Origin: Candidatus Microgenomates bacterium
GTDB taxonomy: Bacteria > Patescibacteriota > Microgenomatia > UBA1406 > HO2-37-13b
Length of the DNA: 64,000 bases
Assembly: GCA_025449735.1 (NCBI GenBank)
Contig: JANWIV010000003.1
Location: 186,001-250,000, forward strand
Direction: 5' to 3'
Shown here: piece after piece, positions 27,091-41,350 of the stretch
How the letters are laid out: each line of letters begins with the position of its first letter
How positions within the stretch are numbered: position 1 is the first letter of the stretch
Translations under genes and position numbers: made by a program
The notes under the pieces: model-generated
Database searches by the model: none
Seen by the model: only the letters and a program-made list of their open reading frames with translations
Told to the model about the DNA's origin: nothing

Positions 27091-28353
27091 TTAGTTCTTT
27101 ATTTCTCTTTTCCCCGTCACCAATTGGGGAATTAAAAGATCACGGGTTTTGATCAATATATCGATTTGTTTTACAAGCTTATCAACCTCATTAATCGCCG
27201 GTTCACATAATTTAGCAAACTCTATCAGTGATTTATGGTCGGGTATAATTGCATCATATTCCAAAATTGCAGTTGGTTTGAGATGAAGGACATTTGCCCC
27301 ATTAGCTTTTTGTTTCGTTGTTTCAGTAAATCGATAACTTGATAGTATCTTGTACAAAAAACTATTAGGTAATACATCAGAATTTATTTTTACAACATCC
27401 GCTGAAAATGTAACTTGTCCGTTGATTTCTGGTACACGTGCTGGTCTTGCAATCACAGCCCGATCAGTTGTCATGTCAGTGACTGCCACTACAATATCTC
27501 CAGCTTCAAGCGATTGATTGCTATTAATTGTTCCTGAAAAATATTTCACACCGTCAAATCGAAAACCACCTCCACGATTAAAACTTTTAAGATTTACCAT
27601 ATAATAATCACCGATAAAATCATTAATATCTTCGCTGGAATACGAACGTCCACGAATAATATTTGCGACTTCGGAAAGTTTTTTCACTTTCCACCCCTCT
27701 GGAATCTTGTCATATTTAGTACCACTATCAACCATCTTTACTTTTTCATGCCCTGGAAATTTGAATTTTACAAACCATTCTGTGTAAAGCAGTTGCGCCA
27801 TTTCCTCAAGCGTTTTAATTCGCTTTTCGTTATTTTCAATTAGGTCGTCATAAGTAGAAAGAGCAGATGCAATACGAATTTGAATTTGTGGATCGGGTAA
27901 ATCTACAAGAGTATTTTCAATCAATGGTAAACGTAAGTTGCTGACTGTAGATCCAGACCCATCTGAACGTTTGAACTGCCTTTGAACTGAAGGAGATATA
28001 AGTTGGTATAAAAGAAACTTTGCATCAATTTTTTTTGGTTGAATTAAAACTACTCGTTGACCAAGACACAATTTTTCTTCATTGTTTACATAGCCAACTT
28101 GACCAATAGGAGCTTCACGTGAAAGGATACTATCTCCTACTTTTGGAACCGCTCTTTTTGTACGATAAACGTAATTATCATAGTTTGTATAACTTGCTTT
28201 TTCTTTAATGATTCTACCGTTAGAAAGATTATAATTTCTAACAACAAAATAACCAACGTCTGTCCAACTTGGTGTGGAGTGTGGGCAGTCAACTATTTTC
28301 GCAATCTCACCTAACTTTACTTTCTGCCAATTATTTATTATCAGATTTTGCAT
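27091..28353 (-). CDS. hsdS: Type I restriction enzyme specificity subunit (HsdS)
   Basis: 420 residues with two target-recognition domains, each followed by a conserved helical spacer: NNWQKVKLGEIAKIVDCPHS at the start and a second TRD opening IPEGWKVKKLSEVANIIRGR near residue 215. The segments LPLIENTLVDLPDPQIQIRI and IPDHKSLIEFAKLCEPAINE are the paired connector helices. It fixes the DNA sequence methylated and protected by HsdM. It is three bases after a small zinc-ribbon gene. The HsdR gene is two genes downstream. Confidence 0.94.
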   Translation of the reverse strand: MQNLIINNWQKVKLGEIAKIVDCPHSTPSWTDVGYFVVRNYNLSNGRIIKEKASYTNYDNYVYRTKRAVPKVGDSILSREAPIGQVGYVNNEEKLCLGQRVVLIQPKKIDAKFLLYQLISPSVQRQFKRSDGSGSTVSNLRLPLIENTLVDLPDPQIQIRIASALSTYDDLIENNEKRIKTLEEMAQLLYTEWFVKFKFPGHEKVKMVDSGTKYDKIPEGWKVKKLSEVANIIRGRSYSSEDINDFIGDYYMVNLKSFNRGGGFRFDGVKYFSGTINSNQSLEAGDIVVAVTDMTTDRAVIARPARVPEINGQVTFSADVVKINSDVLPNSFLYKILSSYRFTETTKQKANGANVLHLKPTAILEYDAIIPDHKSLIEFAKLCEPAINEVDKLVKQIDILIKTRDLLIPQLVTGKREIKN

Positions 28354-28356
28354 ATG

Positions 28357-28812
28357 TTATCTTTCTGCCTTAATATTTACAACTTGGTTATATTGATTAA
28401 TAAAAATGTCGAATTTGATCATGGTTTGTGGTTCTTTGGTTAATATTTCAATGATTACCTTGAGAATCAGAATGTAAGTCAGGATTCTTTTTGGAGAATT
28501 TGGCAACCATTTCTTTAAGTCGCTGAATTTTGAGGAAGTCTTTATTTCGGTTAAATCATTTTGCTGCTTTGCTTTTTCTAGCGCCTCAAGTAGCTCCTCT
28601 GCTCTTTTAAGTGGATTGTCTGATTGCTCTAAAACCTTGATAACTCCCTCGACCGTTCCTTTAAATGTGCCGTCTGGAATATTTTCAAAAGAACCACAGA
28701 ACGGACATATAGATTTATTACCTACCAAAGTTATACTCGCTCCAGAGCCAATATTTAGTCCTGAAGAAAAACTTCTAAAACAAGTTTTGCACTGCATCAT
28801 TAATAAAGCCAT
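28357..28812 (-). CDS. Small zinc-ribbon protein in the restriction operon
   Basis: 151 residues. MMQCKTCFRSF and later KSICPFCGSFENIP form two CxxC pairs, a zinc ribbon. Then a helical region (GTVEGVIKVLEQSDNPLKRAEELLEALEKAKQQ) and a hydrophobic C-terminal segment. It ends three bases before hsdS. Zinc-ribbon proteins of this size sometimes accompany type I systems, but I know no tested function. Confidence 0.5.
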   Translation of the reverse strand: MALLMMQCKTCFRSFSSGLNIGSGASITLVGNKSICPFCGSFENIPDGTFKGTVEGVIKVLEQSDNPLKRAEELLEALEKAKQQNDLTEIKTSSKFSDLKKWLPNSPKRILTYILILKVIIEILTKEPQTMIKFDIFINQYNQVVNIKAER

Positions 28813-28943
28813 ATTTTATTCTTTCATTTTCTTGATCTAAAAAAAATTTTAACAGTCCGGAAATTCCTAATAACTGAATTTTTATTTCGTCAAATAATCT
28901 TTTCCTGGTCTTCTTTGATTTTTACTTTCTGAAAAGTTGTCAT
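28775..28943 (-). pseudogene. Small gene with a +1 frameshift, between the Fic and zinc-ribbon genes
   Basis: A start ATG at 28941-28943 lies three bases after the Fic stop and opens MTTFQKVKIKEDQEKII, then TGA at 28890-28892. In the +1 frame, the sequence continues without interruption as DEIKIQLLGISGLLKFFLDQ and on to a TAG at 28775-28777 inside the next gene. Together they give a plausible 55-residue helical protein. The shift point reads ATT TGA C, which resembles the prfB-type programmed +1 site but lacks the usual CTT. It could be a true frameshift mutation, a sequencing error or programmed. I treat it as a broken gene. Confidence 0.45.
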
Positions 28944-28946
28944 AAT

Positions 28947-30089
28947 TTATTTTCTAAATAGCGTCACGTAATCCTTCATTTCAAACAACCTGTTTCTGGA
29001 ATAACCAGTTTTCTCCTGTAGAATTCCTAGCCTCGTGAGATCGGCAACAAGATCGCTTCCTGCTTTAAAACTGATACTCAAAACTTCACTCACGCTATTT
29101 ACACTCACAATTGGCTGTGAGAATAGATGTAAAAGTAATTGCCTCGCTCTTGGAACTTTTCTTCCTAAGGTTGCGATTTTATTATCATATTGCTCACGAA
29201 GCGTAATAATATTTTCGAATTTTTGTTTTCCTTTATTGCTCGTCATGACAACCCCTTCAAGGAAAAATCGTATCCACCCCTCAAGATTATCTTTCTGTCG
29301 AACTTCATCAAGCATTTCATAATATGATTGGCGATATTCTTCAAAATAGTCTGAAATATACAATACTGGCTTACTCAGAAATCCGCGCTCTATGAGTTGC
29401 AAAGCAATAAGCAATCGACCAATACGACCATTTCCATCAAGAAATGGATGAATCGTTTCAAATTGATAATGCATGATCGCTATTTTTATCAAAACCGGAA
29501 TATTTAATGAAGAATTATGCCAAAATCTTTCCCAATCAGAAAGTAATTCTGCAACTTTTTCGTGGTGTGGTGGTACAAAGTGGGCTGTACGAATAGAAGA
29601 ACCCCCGATCCAGTTTTGACTTGTGCGAATCTCTCCAGGCATTTTATGCTTACCTCTTACGCTTACAAGAAGTCTCGCATGTGTTTCTTTTATGAGTCGT
29701 ACTGAAACTGGTAATGTCTTTTGCTCTTCAACCGACCAGTTCATGGCGTTGATATAGTTTTTAACCTCTCTCCAATCATCTCGTCGTTCTGGATCAATTT
29801 CATCTTCCGGAAGCAATACTTCATCTATTTCTGTACGGGTGCCTTCGATACGAGACGAGCTTACCGCTTCGGATTTAACATGCATTTGAATGAAATAATC
29901 AATATCAGGGACTAATCGCGAATATGCGTTTAATTCGCCCAATAAACGAGTAGCCTCTTCAAGAAGAATGATTGTAGACTGATCACTAGCTATAAATGGT
30001 CTGTTAATAGGAGAGGGTAGGAAACTTTTATATTCAGTCTCCTTGCCTGCATACATTGTTTGGTATGTTCCCGCAGTAAAGTTTTTCAT
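28947..30089 (-). CDS. Fic family protein (DUF4172-like N-terminus)
   Basis: 380 residues with the Fic active site HPFLDGNGRIGRLL (AMP or nucleotide transfer) and an N-terminal domain beginning with SFLPSPINRPFI. The segment VSSSRIEGTRTEIDE holds the inhibitory (S/T)xxxE(G/N) motif (SSRIEG), indicating autoinhibition as in class II Fic proteins. A C-terminal wHTH-like tail (VNSVSEVLSISFKAGSDLVADLTRLGILQEK) follows. It is placed between hsdM and hsdS and has its own promoter. It may regulate or protect the restriction enzyme (inference). Confidence 0.88.
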   Translation of the reverse strand: MKNFTAGTYQTMYAGKETEYKSFLPSPINRPFIASDQSTIILLEEATRLLGELNAYSRLVPDIDYFIQMHVKSEAVSSSRIEGTRTEIDEVLLPEDEIDPERRDDWREVKNYINAMNWSVEEQKTLPVSVRLIKETHARLLVSVRGKHKMPGEIRTSQNWIGGSSIRTAHFVPPHHEKVAELLSDWERFWHNSSLNIPVLIKIAIMHYQFETIHPFLDGNGRIGRLLIALQLIERGFLSKPVLYISDYFEEYRQSYYEMLDEVRQKDNLEGWIRFFLEGVVMTSNKGKQKFENIITLREQYDNKIATLGRKVPRARQLLLHLFSQPIVSVNSVSEVLSISFKAGSDLVADLTRLGILQEKTGYSRNRLFEMKDYVTLFRK

Positions 30090-30095
30090 ACAGTA

Positions 30096-30124
30096 AATAT
30101 ACCATATTATATTATACTTTGCAA
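30096..30124 (-). promoter_or_regulatory. Promoter giving a leaderless Fic mRNA
   Basis: On the minus strand TTGCAA (30119-30124) and TATATT (30096-30101) are separated by 17 bases. The -10 ends six bases before the ATG at 30089, so transcription would start at or next to the start codon. No Shine-Dalgarno is present. It permits the Fic gene to be expressed independently of hsdM. Confidence 0.55.
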
Positions 30125-30146
30125 GTGTAAAGTAAAATAAGTAATT

Positions 30147-31736
30147 CTATATGATAGTTTTCCAATCATCTTTGATTTTCCTTTCCAAATTGTGTGCTTC
30201 TGTTGTGAGTAATGTGAAATCACCCATAAGCTCTTTCATACGCGCATCAAAATCAACGCCACTCATTTCTTTTTCTACTATTTCTACATAGCGCCCCGGA
30301 TTAAGAGAGTAGTCATTAGTCCGAACTTCTTCAAGAGTTGCCACTTTGCATCTTCCTTTGATATCCTGATATTTCTCTTCGCCTTTTTCTTCACGATATC
30401 TTCGAACGATGGAGGCAATTTCTTGAATTTGCTCATCTGTCCACTCGCTATGGGCGCGATCAATGGGAGTGAAAACGTCTTGAGCGTTAATAAAAAGTGT
30501 TGTGTTTTGTCTGGCAGTGCCATTTTTACGCTTATCAAAAAACCATAAGGTGCAAGAGAGTGTAGCATTCATAAACATATTGGTACCGACAGAAATAATC
30601 ACATCTACCATTCCCGCATCAATCATTTTTTTGCGGATCTCTTTTTCAGCATTTCCGGCATCACTGGCTGAATTTGCCATAACAAAACCGGCGCGACCTT
30701 GCGGATTTAGGGCACTTGCAAACATTTGCATCCACAGATAATTGGCATTTGAAATTTCGCCTTTACCAGTGATAGGAAGTCCAAGATAGTAGCGTGGATC
30801 GCCCTTTATCTTTGCTGGATCAATCACGATTTGCTTATTTTTATCTTTCCCTTTTACATTAAAGGGTGGATTGGCAAGTACGAAATCAAAAGCGCCGACA
30901 CTGTTAAACGCATCAGTATAAAAAGAATTAACTTCGGCAATTTTGCCAGACAAGCCGTGAATTGCGAGGTTCATTTTGGCAGTACGGATATTACTCGTTC
31001 CTTTTTCTTGACCATACAAGGCGATTTCATTCATTATCTTGTCTGTATAAGAGTGTGCCTTTACAAAGTTTGCAGATTGTACAAACATTCCACCGCTTCC
31101 GCAGGCTGGATCAAAAATTTTACCGTGATACGGCTCAATGACTTCTACCAACAACTTAACAATAGATTGTGGCGTAAAAAACTCTCCTCCTTTTGCCCCT
31201 TCTGAACGTGCAAATTCACCTAGAAAGTATTCGTAAATCTCTCCAAACGCATCGCCTTCAATATCGTCAGGGATTTGGTTAAAGTTTTTTAGAAGTGTGA
31301 TCAGTATTTGGCTATTTTCACCAGGGGTTCTGTGCAATGACTCGTAATCTCTTGGGAGCACACCGGCTAGGTCAGTATTTTCAGCTTCGATAGCTTTCAT
31401 AGCCTCGTTAATAGCTTTACCAATATTTTCACTCCCCGGAAGACTCATGAGATATGAATACGTGGCTATCTCAGGCAAAAACAGCACGCCTTTTGATTTG
31501 TAGTGATCTGGTGTAAGTGGAGCCTGTCTGTGGCCACTTGTTGAGTACTGCGTTCCGGACCGATCAGCGACAATGTCCACTTGCACTTTTTTAAATCGAA
31601 CATCAGCAAATTTTAAGAATATCAAGCCTAATATCGGCTCAGAAATCTCATTGAGTTTAAGACCTGAGTTTGCTCGAAGTTGTACTGCAGCCGACCAAAG
31701 TCTTTCATGGAGCTGTTTACGATTGTTGGTTGTCAT
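30147..31736 (-). CDS. hsdM: Type I restriction enzyme modification subunit (HsdM)
   Basis: 529 residues: an N-terminal helical domain (LWSAAVQLRANSGLKLNEIS) and an N6-adenine methyltransferase with the SAM motif IFDPACGSGGMFVQS and the catalytic NPPF in DFVLANPPFNVKG. It methylates the host DNA in complex with HsdS. It heads the restriction operon (hsdM, Fic, small genes, hsdS, nuclease, hsdR, all on the minus strand). The 143-base upstream region shows no convincing Shine-Dalgarno. Confidence 0.96.
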   Translation of the reverse strand: MTTNNRKQLHERLWSAAVQLRANSGLKLNEISEPILGLIFLKFADVRFKKVQVDIVADRSGTQYSTSGHRQAPLTPDHYKSKGVLFLPEIATYSYLMSLPGSENIGKAINEAMKAIEAENTDLAGVLPRDYESLHRTPGENSQILITLLKNFNQIPDDIEGDAFGEIYEYFLGEFARSEGAKGGEFFTPQSIVKLLVEVIEPYHGKIFDPACGSGGMFVQSANFVKAHSYTDKIMNEIALYGQEKGTSNIRTAKMNLAIHGLSGKIAEVNSFYTDAFNSVGAFDFVLANPPFNVKGKDKNKQIVIDPAKIKGDPRYYLGLPITGKGEISNANYLWMQMFASALNPQGRAGFVMANSASDAGNAEKEIRKKMIDAGMVDVIISVGTNMFMNATLSCTLWFFDKRKNGTARQNTTLFINAQDVFTPIDRAHSEWTDEQIQEIASIVRRYREEKGEEKYQDIKGRCKVATLEEVRTNDYSLNPGRYVEIVEKEMSGVDFDARMKELMGDFTLLTTEAHNLERKIKDDWKTII

Positions 31737-32819: not shown

Positions 32820-33866
32820 CTAGACACTGGAAGATTTATCGGAAGTATTTGAATGTAAAAAGTACAGATGGTTCTTCAAACGTTGCTTTAATTTAAAACT
32901 ATTTGCATGTTTTAAATAACCAAAATATGACTGAAGGCTTTGGTTAAATGAATCATAAGAAATGTAGTCACGAGTAAGTTCTTCCATCTTCTTATCTAGC
33001 TTTTGGAAGAGACGTTTTTTTGTTTTAGTCCGTGGCAAAATGTAATGAGGTAAAATAACATAACCAAGAAAATCAATACCCCAAGAAAACTTTCGTATGA
33101 GAATTTTTCTAGGATGTAGCTTGATCTTTAATTGTTGCTGTAAAAAACCGTCCACTTTCTCAATCAAAGAATCCAGTAGCTTTTCATCTTGGCTCACAAT
33201 AATAAAATCATCACAGTATCTAATGTAATGTCTGATATGAAGTTCATGTTTTATGAATTGATCAAGCTCATTTAAATAGACATTAGCAAATAATTGACTG
33301 GTAAGATTCCCTAGCGGCAACCCCCTTGGAAAACTATCCAAAACTTTTTTAATGAGGAAAATGGTTCTTTCATCTTGAATTGTTTTGTTAATTATCGAAA
33401 GGAGAATATCTTTATCAACTGAGGCAAAGTACTTGCTTACATCACATTTAAGCACATACGTATCTTGAGAGTAATTTTTACTCGATTTTTTTAAGAATAC
33501 TTGTAGTCTCTTTACTGCTTTATGGGTTCCTTTATCATTTCTACATGAATATGAGTCGAAAATAAATGTAGGATCAAAAATTGGATATAGAGATGAATAG
33601 ATGGCTTGATGTACGAGACGATCTTTAACCGTTGCCTTATGAATATGACGCTGCTTTGGATCATTGACATAAAATGGGATGTAGTCATCGTGGGTATAAA
33701 TACTCTTTTTAAGAGAGGTGTGGAGATCAAAAATATTATCCTCAAGGTGATAGTTAAATATCTGAACATCCTTTCTTTTCTTTTTTCCTAGTTGAAACCT
33801 TTCCCACGCCCTAAACAGACTTTCAACTGCTATAATACCTTCATAAGAAATTACTTTTGTACTCAT
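32820..33866 (-). CDS. Diversity-generating retroelement reverse transcriptase
   Basis: 348 residues of the DGR reverse transcriptase clade. The catalytic motifs are LKCDVSKYFASVD (D142) and IRYCDDFIIVS (YCDD at 217-220). Motif 4 is GLPLGNLTSQL (182-192), with the S-Q that distinguishes DGR RTs from group II intron RTs (S-P). It copies the template repeat with adenine mutagenesis. There is no maturase domain. Its ATG abuts that of avd (CAT-ATG at 33864-33869), on the opposite strand. Template repeat, variable repeat and RT all read on the minus strand. Confidence 0.95.
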   Translation of the reverse strand: MSTKVISYEGIIAVESLFRAWERFQLGKKKRKDVQIFNYHLEDNIFDLHTSLKKSIYTHDDYIPFYVNDPKQRHIHKATVKDRLVHQAIYSSLYPIFDPTFIFDSYSCRNDKGTHKAVKRLQVFLKKSSKNYSQDTYVLKCDVSKYFASVDKDILLSIINKTIQDERTIFLIKKVLDSFPRGLPLGNLTSQLFANVYLNELDQFIKHELHIRHYIRYCDDFIIVSQDEKLLDSLIEKVDGFLQQQLKIKLHPRKILIRKFSWGIDFLGYVILPHYILPRTKTKKRLFQKLDKKMEELTRDYISYDSFNQSLQSYFGYLKHANSFKLKQRLKNHLYFLHSNTSDKSSSV

Positions 33867-33897
33867 ATGTCAAATAATCAAACATTTAAAAAAGGGC

Positions 33898-33922
33898 CAC
33901 ACACACACACACACACACACAC
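33898..33922. repeat. (CA)12 microsatellite in the avd 5' coding region
   Basis: Twelve CA dinucleotides followed by one extra C. The repeat lies within the N-terminal codons of avd and 32-56 bases upstream of the RT start codon on the other strand, so it also overlaps the region expected to hold the RT promoter. With 12 units the avd ATG is 55 bases before its frame (55 mod 3 = 1). Thirteen or ten units would restore the frame. Dinucleotide tracts of this length are rare in such genomes and mutate by slippage. Confidence 0.85.
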
Positions 33923-34260
33923 CTATAGTAAATACCGGTGGTTGGAATCAACTCGATATTCCTGTCTTTTCAAAAACATATGAATTTTACAAACTCTTAT
34001 ATCAATATCTTCGTCTTTTTCCTAAAAAGGACCGATATACATTGGGACAAAAAATTGACACTCTCGCCCTTAATCTCATAGAACTCGTTATTATAGCGGG
34101 TACAAGTTCTAAAGAAAAGAAGCTGCCATATATTGAAAAAGCAAATACTTCTGTCGATCTTCTTAAACTTCTCCTTCGACTTGCAAAAGATATTGAAGCA
34201 TTAGATGGTAAGAAATACGTTGCTCTCCAGCAAGATTTACAAGAAATTGGAAGAATGCTA

Positions 34261-34285
34261 GGAGGATGGAAAAAATCCATCCTCC
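34261..34285. other. Perfect 10-bp hairpin next to the template repeat
   Basis: GGAGGATGGA / TCCATCCTCC with an AAAAA loop (34261-34285). On the plus strand it encodes the end of avd; on the minus strand it lies 24 bases after the template repeat, in the spacer of the template RNA between TR and RT. Known DGR template RNAs rely on structures just 3' of TR to prime cDNA synthesis, so this hairpin is a candidate. The loop-downstream sequence is not T-rich, so it is not a typical terminator. Confidence 0.55.
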
Positions 34286-34309
34286 CTTCTCTTTAGAGCA
34301 AGATACTAT

Positions 34310-34426
34310 CTCGAAACGGCCACCTATATTGTCATTGCGATTGTCTGGATTCCAATTCGAATTGGCATTGAGGTTGCCATCCGTATTGAAGTTCGCATTG
34401 AGAACTCTGCCATCGTTGCGAGAACC
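34310..34426 (-). repeat. DGR template repeat (TR)
   Basis: 117 bp, aligned without gaps to the variable repeat at 34752-34868. Read on the minus strand it gives G-S-R-N-D-G-R-V-L-N-A-N-F-N-T-D-G-N-L-N and onward, with twelve Asn (AAY) codons. It has 35 adenines (T on the plus strand); 23 of them differ in VR and nothing else differs. The codon periodicity is the hallmark of a DGR template. It does not encode a protein of its own. Confidence 0.96.
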
Positions 34427-34739: not shown

Positions 34740-35432
34740 TCATTTCACTCCCTCGAAACGGCCACCCATACTGTCATGGCGAGAGCCTGGATCCCAAAGC
34801 GAACTGGCACCGAGGCCGCCACCCGCATTGAAGCGCGCACCGAGAACCCCGCCATCGTCGCGAGAACCGGGAAGACGAGACCATGTTTGATATCCATGAT
34901 CAAAATATTCACCAGTAAGATCAAAATTATCTTCTGATCCAATAATATACGTTTCTAAAGTCATACCATGTCTACCTGTTTCTTCTGCAATTCTTTGAAG
35001 GTCGGCTACATTTGTACGAAGGTTTGGGGCTTTTGTAGAATTTTCTATATCAAGATACCCAAATCGAGGATCGCTTTCTACGGGAGAATTTGGCTGAGTA
35101 GCCCAGCTTCCAAGTGAAGTGTGTATCTGGCCTAGATGTGCGAGAGTGATACCTTCAGGTCGTAAAACTAATTTGCGACCTTGGCCATGCAGTTCCTGAA
35201 CCTCATCTCGAGATCTATCAACACGAGTTCGTGGGATATCGGCTCCAATAATAGTTCCAAATGCTTCCCAGCGTTCGCTCCAATAGTCTGAATAATCCCC
35301 TGGAGTAGGATCTGTAAGCTGTTTGAAAGCATCAGCTGCCTGCCTTACCCGTTGATGGGCATCCGGACGATTTCTAATAAGATCTAAATTTACTTGAAAC
35401 TGAGATTGTTCTGCTCCTACGCGTTCTGACAT
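34740..35432 (-). CDS. DGR target protein with variable C-terminus
   Basis: 230 residues. The C-terminus (residues 189-227) is the variable repeat (34752-34868): the TR Asn positions have become D, G, R, N, G, G, S, L, D, S, H, S. The segment TWSRLPGSRDDGGVLGARFN with following GGRFEGV resembles the C-type-lectin/formylglycine-enzyme-like fold in which DGRs place variable loops. The first 150 residues are soluble and helical and unrecognised; no signal peptide or anchor is visible. The protein likely binds a changing ligand. The mRNA appears leaderless. Confidence 0.92.
   Translation of the reverse strand: MSERVGAEQSQFQVNLDLIRNRPDAHQRVRQAADAFKQLTDPTPGDYSDYWSERWEAFGTIIGADIPRTRVDRSRDEVQELHGQGRKLVLRPEGITLAHLGQIHTSLGSWATQPNSPVESDPRFGYLDIENSTKAPNLRTNVADLQRIAEETGRHGMTLETYIIGSEDNFDLTGEYFDHGYQTWSRLPGSRDDGGVLGARFNAGGGLGASSLWDPGSRHDSMGGRFEGVK
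34752..34868 (-). repeat. DGR variable repeat (VR)
   Basis: 117 bp matching TR at 34310-34426 with 23 substitutions, all at TR adenines (sense): 17 A to G, four A to C, two A to T. The non-adenine positions are identical. This strict pattern is direct evidence of adenine-specific mutagenic retrohoming. It ends nine bases before the target stop codon. Confidence 0.96.
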
Positions 35433-35751: not shown

Positions 35752-37518
35752 ATGGACAATCTATCTAAACAAGAAAATGCAGTCGCCGCAATAAGAGTGT
35801 CCTCGGTTAAGCAAGGAACTCAAGGCGATTCTCCAGAGGCACAAAAAGAGCAGATCGAACAATTCGCTAAATCTCACAATATCAATATTAAGAAATTCTT
35901 TATCTTCCTTGAATCAGCATCTAAAGAGGAACAGCCAGTGCAAGAAGCGATCGATTATTGCAAAAGTCCCAAAAATGATATACAGATTTTTATTATCAAA
36001 TCTATTGACCGATTTACCAGAGGTGGCTCGTATCTCTACGACCATCTAAAAATGCAACTTGAAAAAAAACATGTAAAACTCATTGATATTTATGGCGTTA
36101 TCGGTACACAACAGGTAAACACACTTGAACACCTGGGTATTTCATTTGATTGGAGTGTATATTCGCCAACTAAAAAGGCTGAGATATTGGAAGCAGAACG
36201 AGCAAAGGATGAAATGCGAGATATTATGAGTAGAATGATTGGTGCTGAAATTCGCTATGCCCGAATGGGATATTGGGTACGAAAGTCGCCCTTTGGATAC
36301 ATGAATGAAAAGATTGAAACACCAAATGGCAAAAGAACCATTTTGAAACCTGAGCCGACTGAATCACAATGGGTTATTAAGATGTTTGAACTGAGATGTC
36401 GAGGAAATTTAAACGATCATCAAATTGTTGAAGAAATTAATAATTTGGGTTTTAAGACGAGAGTAGAGATTGTACGAGATCATAAAGACAGAACTAAAAT
36501 TATTAAAGAAAAAGGTGGAAATCCGCTTAACATAAAAGGCTTTTGGCGATATATTCAAAACTCCATCTATGCGGGTGTGAGTATGGAGAAATGGACAAAA
36601 GATAAGCGGGTGAAAGCTCAATACAGTGGACTTGTTTCTATTGAAACATTTAATAAAGCAAATAGAGGTAAAGTTATTATTTCTGAAGAAAATGGAGAAG
36701 TGAAAATTTATCAAAGACCAGCGCCAGAATACTTACTCAAAAAGGGTGTGCGAAACCCTGACTTTCCTTACAAAAGAGTTGTTATGTGTCCTCAGTGCGC
36801 AAGACCATTGTTTGGTAGTGCTTCAAGAGGAAGACTTGGTAAATATTACCCTGCATACCATTGCAATAAAAGAGGTCATTATTTTAGAGTCTCAAAAGAT
36901 AAATTAGAAAAAACTGTTGAGAAGTTTGTAAAAAACATTAATCTCCCACAAAACTATATTGACGCATTAGTTACAACAATAACCACTGAATGGGACAAGA
37001 GACACACCGAAACTAATAAAGATCAGGTTAATATTGACACAAGAATCGCAGAACTCAAAACACAAGCAAAACTATCTTTTGATAAGATCAAATTTTTAAC
37101 ATCAGAAGTTGCCATTAAATACATGGAGCAGGATTTGGTCAAAGCAGAAAATGAGATTGCACAATTATTGGTTGAAAAAGAGAAAGCCATCCAACATCAA
37201 CCCACAGATATAAGGATTGTCATGGCATACATAAAATATTTTCTGGAACACATGGATGATTTACTGTTGGGAGGCTCTGATCCTATGAATAAAGCTTCTT
37301 ATTTTGGGGTACTTTTCGACAAGGCGCCAACCTATGAAGAAATAGATTCTGGCACCGCAGAAATGGCTCAATGCGTGGCTCTAAACGAGCTCTTTGTGCA
37401 CTCTCATAACAACTGGGCTGCCCAGCAGGGATTCGAACCCCGATTACCTGGTTCAGAGCCAGGCGTTCTACCATTGAACTACCGGGCAGATACTTATATT
37501 TTACCACGAAGCAGATAA
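35752..37518 (+). CDS. Large serine recombinase (integrase)
   Basis: 588 residues. N-terminal resolvase domain has AAIRVSSVKQGTQGDSPEAQ (catalytic serine in RVSS) and FIIKSIDRFTRGGS (conserved DRFTR). Then the recombinase domain (IQNSIYAGV) and a zinc ribbon (CPQCARPLFG... CNKRGH), then a coiled-coil C-terminus. It integrates or excises this element. From about residue 552 the frame reads antisense through tRNA-Gln (AAQQGFEPRLPGSEPGVLPL), so the true C-terminus has probably been replaced at integration. Neighbours: DGR upstream, host glycosidase downstream. Confidence 0.92.
   Translation: MDNLSKQENAVAAIRVSSVKQGTQGDSPEAQKEQIEQFAKSHNINIKKFFIFLESASKEEQPVQEAIDYCKSPKNDIQIFIIKSIDRFTRGGSYLYDHLKMQLEKKHVKLIDIYGVIGTQQVNTLEHLGISFDWSVYSPTKKAEILEAERAKDEMRDIMSRMIGAEIRYARMGYWVRKSPFGYMNEKIETPNGKRTILKPEPTESQWVIKMFELRCRGNLNDHQIVEEINNLGFKTRVEIVRDHKDRTKIIKEKGGNPLNIKGFWRYIQNSIYAGVSMEKWTKDKRVKAQYSGLVSIETFNKANRGKVIISEENGEVKIYQRPAPEYLLKKGVRNPDFPYKRVVMCPQCARPLFGSASRGRLGKYYPAYHCNKRGHYFRVSKDKLEKTVEKFVKNINLPQNYIDALVTTITTEWDKRHTETNKDQVNIDTRIAELKTQAKLSFDKIKFLTSEVAIKYMEQDLVKAENEIAQLLVEKEKAIQHQPTDIRIVMAYIKYFLEHMDDLLLGGSDPMNKASYFGVLFDKAPTYEEIDSGTAEMAQCVALNELFVHSHNNWAAQQGFEPRLPGSEPGVLPLNYRADTYILPRSR
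37418..37488 (-). tRNA. tRNA-Gln (CTG anticodon)
   Basis: 71 bases: acceptor stem TGCCCGG/CTGGGCA with one G-T pair, TTCGAAT T-arm, and anticodon arm CCTGG-CTCTGAA-CCAGG with CTG in position 34-36. No CCA is encoded. It lies antisense inside the recombinase frame and is the likely integration target or boundary of the island. Confidence 0.93.
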
Positions 37519-37535: not shown

Positions 37536-39467
37536 TTAAAGGAGCATTTTTTTTTCACGGCGCTCATTCATGTAGGCAACTAATTTATCAACTGGATAGG
37601 TAGCAATGCCGGTGACTTTGTCAGCGGCGCCATAATAGACAAACAGCGTATTATCAACAATAACATGACCACATGGAAAAACCACATTATTGACAATCCC
37701 TTCTCTCTCAAATTGTGTTTCTGGTTCAAGAATGGGATATTTAGTCCGAGATAATACTTTTACCGGGTCTTTTCCGTCAAGTAGCATAGCGCCAACGCGA
37801 TATTCCTTGTCTCCCGGATGAATCCCATGATAAAGCAGAAGCCAATAATCTCCTACTCTGTTCGGTGTGCCAGCAATACCCACCTTAGCCGTATCCCAAG
37901 CGTGAGCTCCGGCATTGATATAACCGTGTCCGACAAGATGTCGATTATCTGCAAAATTTAAATCGTCGACATAATCAATTGTAATGTCGCCTTGTACCCG
38001 ATGGAGGATTACAAACTTCCCATTTATTTTCTCAGGAAGTATACAGGCATCCTTATCATCCACCCCAGGGGGAGAAATGATCACTGGTGGCTGCCAATTC
38101 CATTTTCGAGCGATAAAATCGCCTGCTGATATTGAGGTTAAAGCGACACGCGGGATATCAATTCCATTGTATGCGGTATAACACATATAAATCCGGTCTC
38201 CAATCTGAGTCACTCGGCCATCTTCGCAACCAGAGTTCCCCCCGGGATTTTTTTTGGTCTCAAAAGATTCGCGCGGGCCATAAATTGGTTCATGAAGTCT
38301 CTCATCGATATGAATCCCATCTCGACTAATTGCCAGTCCCATAACCGACGTATTGTCATTTGACATCGCTCTATAGATGATATGAATCGCACCATCAATG
38401 TAAATGGCCGTCGGATTGAATACTGCTTGTGCTTCCCATGCATGATCGGGTAGCGGAGATATTACCGGATTATCTTTAAACTTTTGCATTTTAGGAATAT
38501 GGGCGGCATTAATTTGGGTATGTTTATAAATATCCTCAAGTTTAAATATCGCTGAGCAACAGGTGGTATCAGCAGCCCCATAATAGACAATAAGCTCATC
38601 AGCTTTTATCTGTGCTCCAGATGGAAAAATAACATTTGGAATCATCCCCTTCATTTCATAACTTTCTTGAGGTAGAAGTAGTGGAGATTCGACCCGCCCG
38701 ATAATATGACTAGGATTTTCTTTTTCAAGTAGTATTGCTTCGATTCCAAAAATTGGACTTGATGTTCGATAATCTTGTATATAAGAATAGACGACAAGCC
38801 AACCATGTTCAGTCTCAACTGGAGGTGCCCCTACTTCGATATGATCGCGATTTAACCGCTGAAGTGGTAGAGCATGTTCTTCAAAATTAGCATACCACTC
38901 CTGCCAATACTCCGGTGACCACATTTCCCCAATGCTATCAAACTGCACTATGCAAATTTTTGAAGGTGGACGATCGGTATGTACTGTCAAGATTGCGGTT
39001 ATTTTGCCTCCGATTCGACGAGGGAAAATTCCCATAGCTTTTGAATTAAAAGTAGTCGCCAATTTTTTTTCTTGAATAGTTTTTAAATCATCGCTAGTGG
39101 CGATGGCAATTTTTATGCCATCGGCTTCAAATGGATATTTGGATAAAGCGGTATAAGTAATAATAAATTTTCCATCAAGATAAGTGACGCGAGGATCCTC
39201 GCAGCCAAATTTTTCCCATTCAAATTCTGGAGTAATTAGTTGTGAATGATCTATAAATCTCGACTCAGAGTCGGCAACGGCATGACCAATTGTTGACAAT
39301 GACATTTTTATACCACCCACATCTTGAGCTTGAGACATAGCCCGATAAAGTAGATGAGTAGTGTCGCCAATTTGGATTGGACAACCATTAAAAGCCGCGA
39401 TTGATTCCCATGATTTATCAGGATCGGACTTTAAAATTGGATTGTATTTGTTTCGAATGGGATGCAT
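37536..39467 (-). CDS. Tandem double GH130 glycoside phosphorylase-like protein
   Basis: 643 residues, two five-bladed beta-propeller domains of the GH130 type. Each has the family signature: KFGCEDPRVTYLDGKFIITY (near residue 91) and NSGCEDGRVTQIGDRIYMCY (near residue 415). GH130 enzymes phosphorolyse or hydrolyse beta-mannosides. A duplicated full-length fusion is unusual. The gene is three bases after a similar gene, making an operon of two. There is no signal peptide, so it acts in the cytoplasm. Its substrate cannot be judged from sequence. Confidence 0.8.
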   Translation of the reverse strand: MHPIRNKYNPILKSDPDKSWESIAAFNGCPIQIGDTTHLLYRAMSQAQDVGGIKMSLSTIGHAVADSESRFIDHSQLITPEFEWEKFGCEDPRVTYLDGKFIITYTALSKYPFEADGIKIAIATSDDLKTIQEKKLATTFNSKAMGIFPRRIGGKITAILTVHTDRPPSKICIVQFDSIGEMWSPEYWQEWYANFEEHALPLQRLNRDHIEVGAPPVETEHGWLVVYSYIQDYRTSSPIFGIEAILLEKENPSHIIGRVESPLLLPQESYEMKGMIPNVIFPSGAQIKADELIVYYGAADTTCCSAIFKLEDIYKHTQINAAHIPKMQKFKDNPVISPLPDHAWEAQAVFNPTAIYIDGAIHIIYRAMSNDNTSVMGLAISRDGIHIDERLHEPIYGPRESFETKKNPGGNSGCEDGRVTQIGDRIYMCYTAYNGIDIPRVALTSISAGDFIARKWNWQPPVIISPPGVDDKDACILPEKINGKFVILHRVQGDITIDYVDDLNFADNRHLVGHGYINAGAHAWDTAKVGIAGTPNRVGDYWLLLYHGIHPGDKEYRVGAMLLDGKDPVKVLSRTKYPILEPETQFEREGIVNNVVFPCGHVIVDNTLFVYYGAADKVTGIATYPVDKLVAYMNERREKKMLL

Positions 39468-39469
39468 GA

Positions 39470-41350
39470 TTACATAACTTTGCGAATTACCGCAGGTTCT
39501 AGTCTTGGTAATTCAAAATGTTTTAACTCCATGACAAATTTTTCCAAATTGGCAGTAGCGACACAAACATATGAATCAGCACCACCATAATAAACAAATA
39601 ACGTCCCATCGATATCTACCGCACCACAGGGATAAACGACTCCGGCTTTGAAACCTTCATTTTCATAAATCGCATCTGGTTCGAGAATTGGATAGCGAGA
39701 ACGATAAAGAACCTTAGTGGGATCCTTCAAATCAAGAAGCATAGCACCAATCTTATACTTGCTTGAATCCTGATAGCCGACGGCTTGATAAATCAGTAGC
39801 CAACCATCTTTTGTCTTGATCGGTGGCGCCCCAGCACCTATTTTTTTACTATCCCAATAATCACGACGTGGGGAGATTATATTGTCACCATTAAGCCATG
39901 TGTTACCATCAAAATCAAGACTGTCAACAAAATCAATCAAGATATTTGGATAAATGCGATGGGCGATTGCATACTTCCCATTAATTTTCTCAGGGAAAAT
40001 AACAGCATTTTTATCGACAATATTAGGAGGGCTAATTAATACTGGCGTCTCCCATGCCCAACGCTGATTTAAAAAGTCAGAAACCGCAATTGAGGTAAGT
40101 GCCACTCGAGGTGGGTTGACCCCATCAAACGATACATAGGTCATATAAATTTTGTCGTCAATCATTGTCAATCTAGGGTCTTCACAACCACCATAGCCAC
40201 CTCCAGAGACATATTGATGAACCACCTGACTGCTATCATGCGCTTCAAGTGGAGTGAAATCTTTGTGAGGTGAGAAAACTGGTTCTATGCTCCGACTTAT
40301 AACATGATGACCATTTTCAAGAGTGGCATGACCGAGTACCGATACATAATCAAGTCCTTGTGCCCGATAAACTAGATGAACTTGATTTTCAAGATAAATG
40401 GCCGCTGGGTTAAATGTATTAAATGCCTCCCATGGATTTTCAGCATTAGGAGAAATAATTGGATTGTGTTCAATTCGGTCCAATTTAGCAGTGATCTTGC
40501 GAGTAGTGAAACGAAAGTCAGAATCAAAAAGAGTATAGACCGTGGCGTATATACCACCGTTTCGAAGTTGCCAATAACCGATTAATTTGTGACCAATTTG
40601 TACTGCCCCTAGTGGAGTTTTAATCTGTCCTTGCCAAGCCGAAGTCTCTTCCCAAATTGGCTCATGGCTTCTCCAAACAATTCTTTCTGGATTATTAAAA
40701 TCGTACACAACCATCCCAATACTATAATAACTATTCTTCCCAATTTTCTTTTTTCTATGAAAATAAACTTGAATTCCAGCGTCATTCTTACTAACATGCT
40801 CAATTCCATAACTTATGCCGTCAGAGCGACTCAGAGTGGCAATTTCTTTCTTTTGCCACTTGGTACCATTCTCTGAATACGCCGAATAAATTGACTCCCC
40901 ACCAAGATACATTAAATATTTGTCATCAAACCTGAAATCAGGCACAATTAAACCTGAGGTGTCTAGATAAATTTCATGTCGGCACTCACGCCAATTGTTA
41001 AGCCCCGTTGAGGTTGCTGAATAGATGTGAGCCTCTTGATGCTTCTTGAATAAAGCAATGTATTTATCGTCAAGTTTAGAAAGCCTCACGTCATCCAAAG
41101 TATTTATATCTTCTGGATTGCCATGACTGCAAAATAATTTGCCTTGATGCTTCAGACGATTGAAATTAAACCCGTCATCGCTATCAGCAAGAGATAAGGT
41201 ATGGGTGTTACCATTTTTAGGTTGATAGAATAGGATTACTTTCCCATCACGCTCCATCACAGATAACCCCTTAAGAGGTCTCGTGTTATCATTGATCCAT
41301 AATTTTAGACGACCACCCCAATCCTCGCTCTGAGGGTTGCTTTTTTTCAT
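39470..41350 (-). CDS. Double GH130-like protein with degenerate first domain
   Basis: 626 residues. The C-terminal half has the intact signature GGCEDPRLTMIDDKIYMTYV (around residue 390), and the N-terminal half has the related but weakened LDDVRLSKLDDKYIALFKKH, without the Glu-Asp-Pro core. It is thus the same two-domain design as the downstream gene, but only one domain is expected to be catalytic; the other may be structural. The preceding region has a TATAAT box (41391-41396) with a leader of about 40 bases. Confidence 0.72.
   Translation of the reverse strand: MKKSNPQSEDWGGRLKLWINDNTRPLKGLSVMERDGKVILFYQPKNGNTHTLSLADSDDGFNFNRLKHQGKLFCSHGNPEDINTLDDVRLSKLDDKYIALFKKHQEAHIYSATSTGLNNWRECRHEIYLDTSGLIVPDFRFDDKYLMYLGGESIYSAYSENGTKWQKKEIATLSRSDGISYGIEHVSKNDAGIQVYFHRKKKIGKNSYYSIGMVVYDFNNPERIVWRSHEPIWEETSAWQGQIKTPLGAVQIGHKLIGYWQLRNGGIYATVYTLFDSDFRFTTRKITAKLDRIEHNPIISPNAENPWEAFNTFNPAAIYLENQVHLVYRAQGLDYVSVLGHATLENGHHVISRSIEPVFSPHKDFTPLEAHDSSQVVHQYVSGGGYGGCEDPRLTMIDDKIYMTYVSFDGVNPPRVALTSIAVSDFLNQRWAWETPVLISPPNIVDKNAVIFPEKINGKYAIAHRIYPNILIDFVDSLDFDGNTWLNGDNIISPRRDYWDSKKIGAGAPPIKTKDGWLLIYQAVGYQDSSKYKIGAMLLDLKDPTKVLYRSRYPILEPDAIYENEGFKAGVVYPCGAVDIDGTLFVYYGGADSYVCVATANLEKFVMELKHFELPRLEPAVIRKVM

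What the first reader, a model, noticed from the sequence alone, without database searches (positions are those of the whole stretch)
33864..34296. avd is inverted relative to RT, with abutting start codons
RT and avd start codons touch (CAT-ATG at 33864-33869) and point in opposite directions, leaving no intergenic bases. In described DGRs avd lies on the same strand as TR and RT. Here the TR-to-RT RNA would be antisense to the avd mRNA over its full length. This could couple template-RNA and Avd levels through duplex formation, and each promoter must lie inside the other gene. A TATAAT at 33831-33836 inside the RT gene could serve avd.
Basis: partly seen in the sequence, partly recalled or inferred. 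Interest (0 to 1): 0.75.

Follow-up and report, generated by a model that had tools for sequence, protein, structure and literature searches.

The report
Repeat-tract switch on a mutation machine
In many tiny environmental bacteria, a gene machine that deliberately scrambles one protein seems to be flipped on and off by a short slippery DNA repeat; in this genome the switch reads 'off'.

Summary
The inverted, start-to-start RT/avd pair is real, but the proposed avd start codon (33867) is out of frame with the avd body. Between them lies a perfect (CA)12.5 tract (33898-33922), the only (CA)8-or-longer tract in the 0.82 Mb genome. The DGR is otherwise sound: TR/VR differ at 25 sites, 24 of them TR adenines; the avd frame passes NCBI's Avd cut-off; avd and RT are single.

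Survey of 391 loci: divergent RT/avd is the rule in this Patescibacteria RT clade (222 loci; 48 co-directional, 6 convergent). In 119 of 222 a non-triplet repeat (poly-C, CA, CT, AG, a pentamer, CAAT) lies between the avd start and domain; co-directional 0 of 48, convergent 0 of 6; simulation 14 of 4000. Another 22 carry one inside RT instead. The start codon reads into avd in 34 of 119 repeat loci (about 1/3) against 98 of 103 without. RTs with internal repeats are broken there in 16 of 28, against 1 of 270 otherwise. OFF avd bodies stay intact (82 of 84).

Best explanation: slipped-strand phase variation switches Avd or RT, hence targeted hypermutation, ON and OFF. I found no report of this in the papers searched. 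Switching in living populations was not shown.

The parts
32820..33866 (-). DGR reverse transcriptase gene (348 aa), intact
   Evidence: ORF; PF00078 2.9e-18; single in genome
33831..33836 (+). TATAAT inside RT, possible avd -10 element (inferred)
   Evidence: sequence; weak enrichment across relatives; not listed by scan
33867..33869 (+). putative avd start codon abutting the RT start; out of frame with the avd body in this assembly
33898..33922 (+). perfect (CA)12.5 simple sequence repeat, the proposed phase-variation switch
   Evidence: only (CA)8-or-longer tract in the genome
33867..33983 (+). reading frame actually opened by the ATG: 38 aa, then stop (OFF product)
33922..34296 (+). avd body in the +1 frame; four-helix bundle Avd
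   Evidence: PF22296 1e-20; NF033474 4e-26, 91.4 bits over cut-off 80; fold match to BPP-1 Avd 8ub7/4dwl
34305..34426 (-). template repeat (TR)
   Evidence: 24 of 25 TR/VR mismatches at TR adenines
34747..34868 (-). variable repeat (VR) at the 3' end of the target gene; only VR found in the genome
34740..35432 (-). DGR target gene (230 aa ORF), intact
   Evidence: TTGACA-18-TATAAT upstream at 35470-35441

Best explanation
This is a DGR whose accessory gene avd is a contingency (phase-variable) locus. Slipped-strand mispairing changes the number of CA units just after the avd start codon. One tract length in three joins the start to the avd frame (ON); the others give a short stub (38 residues here) and no Avd (OFF). 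Avd is needed for cDNA synthesis in the model DGR, so the tract would stochastically and reversibly turn targeted hypermutation of the VR on and off: search while ON, keep the found variant while OFF. The same principle, with different non-triplet repeats placed in avd or in RT, recurs across Patescibacteria DGRs with divergent avd. Shown by sequence: tract, frame, family-wide pattern, intact OFF genes. Inferred: slippage in living cells, loss of Avd protein, loss of mutagenesis, selective advantage.
For: Tract and frame in the window; only (CA)8+ tract in the genome. 119 of 222 divergent loci have an SSR between avd start and domain, 0 of 48 co-directional, 0 of 6 convergent; Markov simulation 14 of 4000 windows. 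Units C 78, CA 20, CT 13, AG 5, ACAGG 3, CAAT 1; none of unit 3 or 6. Start reads into avd in 34 of 119 SSR loci (not different from 1/3, p 0.29) against 98 of 103 SSR-free loci (p 1e-26). RT-internal SSRs: RT frame broken there in 16 of 28; 1 of 270 RTs without; they lie just before conserved RT stretches. OFF avd bodies intact 82 of 84; dN/dS 0.03-0.17 in 4 OFF-OFF pairs. Closest SSR pairs differ in length and state: C10 OFF/C8 ON, CT13.5 OFF/CT11 ON, GA19.5/GA10.5, CT9.5/CT16. SSR label changes 55 times by parsimony, against 108 shuffled. In 13 CA-type genomes all 13 (CA)7+ tracts found, in 11 of them, lie at avd. Avd nonsense mutations drop retrohoming to background in reconstituted BPP-1 (PMC12875486, passages).
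Against: No same-species pair or read data, so tract-length change within a population is not seen; two IMG/VR scans for near-identical copies found none. All three such DGRs of the window's family (L003, L004, L005) have the same length, CA 12.5, and the same OFF frame. In two close pairs the tract length is equal (C9/C9). 69 of 222 divergent loci have no SSR found. The avd start is taken as the nearest ATG; 6 of 119 are ON only through another ATG, 1 has none. A non-ATG start (such as ATT or ATA) in the avd frame upstream of the tract cannot be excluded here.
Confidence: 0.85

Rival explanations
1. The repeat changes transcription, not translation: it lies upstream of the RT start and sets promoter spacing for RT (and TR), as the TA tract does between the divergent hifA/hifB promoters (recalled).
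For: The tract lies within about 60 nt upstream of the RT start on the RT strand, and starts abut or overlap in many loci.
Against: 22 further loci carry the repeat inside the RT gene only, where it cannot be a promoter spacer; no triplet or hexamer units; SSR-free loci keep the avd frame in 98 of 103; an open ATG lies upstream of the tract, so that the tract is coding, in 118 of 119 loci.
Confidence: 0.06
2. avd is a decaying pseudogene or an assembly error frozen out of frame.
For: Out of frame in this assembly; mononucleotide runs are error-prone in some sequencing methods.
Against: OFF bodies intact 82 of 84, strong purifying selection, about one third of SSR loci in frame, SSR-free loci 98 of 103 in frame; RTs break at the SSR and almost nowhere else; CA tracts specific to avd in genome-wide scans.
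Confidence: 0.04
3. Avd is made from the out-of-frame gene by programmed ribosomal or transcriptional slippage on the repeat, giving a low constant Avd dose.
For: Poly-C and dinucleotide tracts can slip; the avd body is conserved while out of frame.
Against: SSR loci occupy all three frames (0, +1 and +2) instead of one fixed register; unrelated units including a pentamer serve the same place; RT is broken in the same way in other loci.
Confidence: 0.05

Closest known systems
Bordetella phage BPP-1 DGR (mtd-avd-TR-brt)
   Same: RT, Avd, TR, VR with adenine-specific differences; Avd fold matches 8ub7/4dwl
   Different: BPP-1 avd flanks TR on its 5' side in one operon with brt (PMC12875486, passages); here avd is inverted between TR and RT and carries a frame-shifting repeat
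Patescibacteria DGR clade 2 of Roux et al. 2021 (PMC8144416, passages)
   Same: Patescibacteria-restricted cellular DGRs; the text reports lower-than-average activity for clade 2, as OFF alleles would predict (inference)
   Different: A word search of its main text found no 'avd', 'frameshift' or 'orientation'; clade assignment of this RT was not computed
SSR contingency loci (Haemophilus tetranucleotide tracts, Neisseria, Campylobacter poly-G/C; PMC11868660 passages; PMC2651432, PMC6321876, PMC4965091 abstracts in listings)
   Same: Non-triplet repeat in a coding region, ON/OFF frames; one locus here even uses CAAT
   Different: Those known to me switch mostly surface structures or methylases; here the switched gene belongs to a hypermutation machine
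Phasevarions and repeat-tuned mutators (mutL tandem repeats; recalled)
   Same: A local repeat controls a higher-order regulator or the mutation rate
   Different: Those change global methylation or genome-wide mutation; here targeted mutagenesis of one gene

Membership tests
Diversity-generating retroelement | RT beside TR/VR with adenine-specific differences | tested here: met
   24 of 25 mismatches at TR adenines; RT hits PF00078; no NCBIfam RT model reaches its cut-off
Diversity-generating retroelement | Avd accessory protein | tested here: met
   NF033474 91.4 bits over cut-off 80; PF22296; fold match to BPP-1 Avd
Diversity-generating retroelement | Active mutagenic retrohoming now | not testable with these tools
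   Only past activity is implied by TR/VR differences
Canonical avd-TR-RT operon | avd co-directional with RT | tested here: not met
   avd on the opposite strand
SSR contingency locus (phase-variable gene) | Non-triplet SSR in the 5' coding region that shifts frame | tested here: met
   (CA)12.5 at 33898-33922; out of frame
SSR contingency locus (phase-variable gene) | Repeat conserved in position, variable in length between relatives, both states found | tested here: met
   119 of 222 loci; ON 34, OFF 84, no ATG 1 of 119; pairs differ
SSR contingency locus (phase-variable gene) | High-frequency reversible length change within a population | not testable with these tools
   No reads or same-species pairs

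The most novel reading that the evidence does not exclude
Patescibacteria have repeatedly evolved a two-layer mutation system: a microsatellite switch, placed in avd or in RT, randomly turns a retroelement hypermutator on and off, so that lineages alternate between searching for a new binding protein and locking it in. Switchability itself, not any one repeat or site, is what selection keeps.
Probability: 0.75. Interest if true: 0.92.

Novelty: new variant of a known kind. Interest (0 to 1): 0.88.

Why it matters
How DGR activity is regulated in nature is called an exciting frontier in a 2026 paper (PMC12875486, passage). A repeat switch gives a simple, testable answer for a large bacterial group: the activity state can be read from the tract length in any genome or read set. 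It could explain the lower-than-average activity reported for Patescibacteria DGR clade 2 (PMC8144416, passage). It also links two textbook ways of making diversity, phase variation and DGRs, one controlling the other, and suggests that gene callers will miss avd, or split RT, in OFF genomes.

Tried and rejected
Rejected: inverted avd as peculiar to this genome (222 divergent loci); pseudogene or assembly error; promoter spacing as the main effect; programmed frameshifting (see rivals). Promoter evidence for avd stayed weak. Tetranucleotide repeats just past RT in 7 loci remain unexplained. TR/VR detection in 14 loci found pairs in only 4 with my strict script, and missed the window's own because L001 is cut before the VR. 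Limits: loci are not a random sample. Class-survey loci were chosen among RT best hits and avd hits over cut-off; one search kept the best 80 of 564; I used the 30 loci given plus 100 of the other listed rows, leaving about 14 listed rows and all unlisted ones. In the phylum survey alone: 112 divergent loci, 58 with avd SSR, 22 with RT SSR, 1 counted in both. Identical loci were counted once; no pair over 95% identity remained. A/T mononucleotide runs were not counted as SSRs; seven-base units and one short ATGAT run were dropped from the final avd counts. The dN/dS figures rest on few pairs, several with dS above 1.

Full report
Observation. The avd body is real: PF22296 at 1e-20, NCBIfam DivGenRetAVD 91.4 bits over its cut-off of 80, sequence match to BPP-1 Avd chains 4dwl and 8ub7, and an AlphaFold model (mean pLDDT 84.9) that is a helical bundle with residues 2-23 under pLDDT 50 and finds 8ub7 and 4dwl among its best structural matches, after 2gsc. 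But the ATG at 33867 does not read into it. Its frame stops at 33983; the avd frame (+1) has no ATG, GTG or TTG until 34042, inside the domain. Between them is a perfect (CA)12.5 tract at 33898-33922. A search for (CA)8 found this place only, in five registers, in the whole genome of 821,951 bases.

The DGR is otherwise sound. TR 34305-34426 and VR 34747-34868, both on the minus strand, differ at 25 sites, 24 of them TR adenines; the genome holds one TR and one VR, one RT and one clear avd. The order is VR, TR, inverted avd, RT. A TTGACA-18-TATAAT promoter match precedes the target gene. So mutagenesis has happened in this lineage, although avd is out of frame in this assembly.

Is the inversion odd? 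I searched the class (372 genomes), the phylum (379 genomes), GTDB contigs and IMG/VR, and read 391 loci. Among 276 avd loci with an RT beside them, 222 are divergent, 48 co-directional and 6 convergent. On an RT tree of 258 loci, 43 of 44 co-directional and all 5 convergent loci fall on one side of a branch, with no divergent one; orientation changes 5 times against 46 when shuffled. Inverted avd is thus an old trait of one RT clade. Which published clade it is was not computed; Roux et al. describe a Patescibacteria-restricted clade 2 (PMC8144416, passages). I recall no statement about inverted avd in print; the two papers I thought most likely to hold one (Paul 2017; Wu 2018, recalled) are not held.

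The repeat. In 119 of the 222 divergent loci a simple sequence repeat lies between avd start and avd domain; in 0 of 48 co-directional and 0 of 6 convergent loci. A first-order Markov simulation of SSR-free windows gave 14 of 4000. By unit: C 78, CA 20, CT 13, AG 5, ACAGG 3, CAAT 1 (leaving out one short ATGAT run); unit lengths 1, 2, 4 and 5 only, never 3 or 6. A repeat of 15 nt or more lies inside RT in 23 loci, one of which also has an avd repeat. Seven more loci have a tetranucleotide just past RT, of unknown meaning. No SSR was found in 69 loci.

Frame state. In the 119 loci the nearest ATG reads into avd in 28, another ATG does in 6, none does in 84, and 1 has no ATG: 34 of 119 ON, not different from one third (p 0.29). 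In SSR-free loci 98 of 103 have an ATG in frame (Fisher p 1e-26). For RT: of 28 RTs with any internal SSR, short ones included, 16 change frame there; of 270 complete RTs without, 1 does. In the loci printed, the RT repeats sit just before the (I/V/L)P(L/I)GN stretch or, in three loci, before the KCDVKKFF stretch.

OFF genes are kept. The avd body is open through the domain in 82 of 84 OFF loci. In the four OFF-OFF pairs of at least 74% identity dN/dS is 0.10, 0.17, 0.09 and 0.03; in 14 SSR-free pairs it is 0.03-0.08. Close pairs often differ in tract length and state (C10 OFF/C8 ON; CT13.5 OFF/CT11 ON; GA19.5/GA10.5; CT9.5/CT16), though C9/C9 occurs twice, and the three loci of the window's own family share CA 12.5 and the same OFF frame.

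Genome-wide specificity. In 13 genomes, all chosen because avd is of the CA type, the 13 distinct (CA)7-or-longer tracts found (in 11 of them) are all at avd (my count of places). In 23 genomes (22 chosen for poly-C avd, plus the window's), 57 distinct C9-or-longer tracts occur, 27 at avd and 30 elsewhere, 9 of these in one genome (my count). So the CA tracts are specific; poly-C tracts occur elsewhere too, at about one or two per genome. Since genomes were chosen for the avd tract, only the counts elsewhere are informative.

Convergence. The SSR label (site and unit) changes 55 times by parsimony on the RT tree, against a shuffled mean of 108; presence of any SSR 38 times (a quick FastTree tree). 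Unrelated units at the same site, and two different sites in RT, point to selection for switching, not for a peptide.

Mechanism. Shown: the tract, its frame effect, the pattern in relatives, conservation of OFF genes. From the literature: nonsense mutations in avd drop retrohoming to background in the reconstituted BPP-1 system (PMC12875486, passages); SSRs in coding frames drive ON/OFF phase variation in several pathogens (PMC11868660, passages; PMC4965091, abstract in the search listing). Inferred: slippage in these cells, absence of Avd in OFF cells, arrest of mutagenesis, and benefit from alternating search and retention. Roux et al. report lower-than-average activity for clade 2 (PMC8144416, passage), which fits mostly OFF populations but has other readings, one of which (purifying selection) they give.

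A second, transcriptional effect of the tract is therefore possible, but RT-internal repeats show that frame switching is the common element.

Literature on novelty. Searches for DGR with phase variation, DGR with homopolymer, frameshift, microsatellite or contingency terms, Patescibacteria with phase variation, DGR with Patescibacteria or CPR, and DGR with accessory variability determinant or opposite strand gave no listing that describes a phase-variable DGR. Only passages were read in PMC8144416, PMC10053308, PMC6642488, PMC9948471, PMC12875486, PMC10907252, PMC10221324, PMC3521204 and PMC11868660. The library lacks most subscription journals.

Noticed in passing
L116, L117, L123, L128, L133, L151, L154 (48-79 nt past the RT domain): Tetranucleotide repeats (GATG, ATGG, ATAG, GGAT, TGGA) at a conserved place just past RT in loci without an avd or RT repeat; on the other strand an ATG precedes the tract in six by my reading. 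What they switch, if anything, is unknown.
   Followed up: partly
34261-34285 (+): A 10-pair stem-loop followed by T-rich sequence at the avd 3' end, about 20 nt from the TR end; it could end avd transcription and, on the other strand, belong to the RNA downstream of TR.
   Followed up: no
27091-31736 (-): Type I restriction-modification-like HsdM and HsdS genes with a Fic-like adenylyltransferase gene between them, next to the DGR (all below the models' cut-offs).
   Followed up: no
35752-37518 (+): Large serine recombinase (Resolvase domain, weak recombinase zinc ribbon) beside the DGR target gene, suggesting an integrated element.
   Followed up: no
37536-41350 (-): Two adjacent related proteins of about 630 residues; the first matches a beta-1,2-mannobiose phosphorylase model below its cut-off.
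   Followed up: no
G009 loci L029, L064-L068: One genome (same contigs as Microgenomates Gr01-1014_7, VMGD01) holds six divergent DGRs with different tracts: CA 6.5, 10.5, 9 (ON), 12.5, CT 9.5, and one without.
   Followed up: partly
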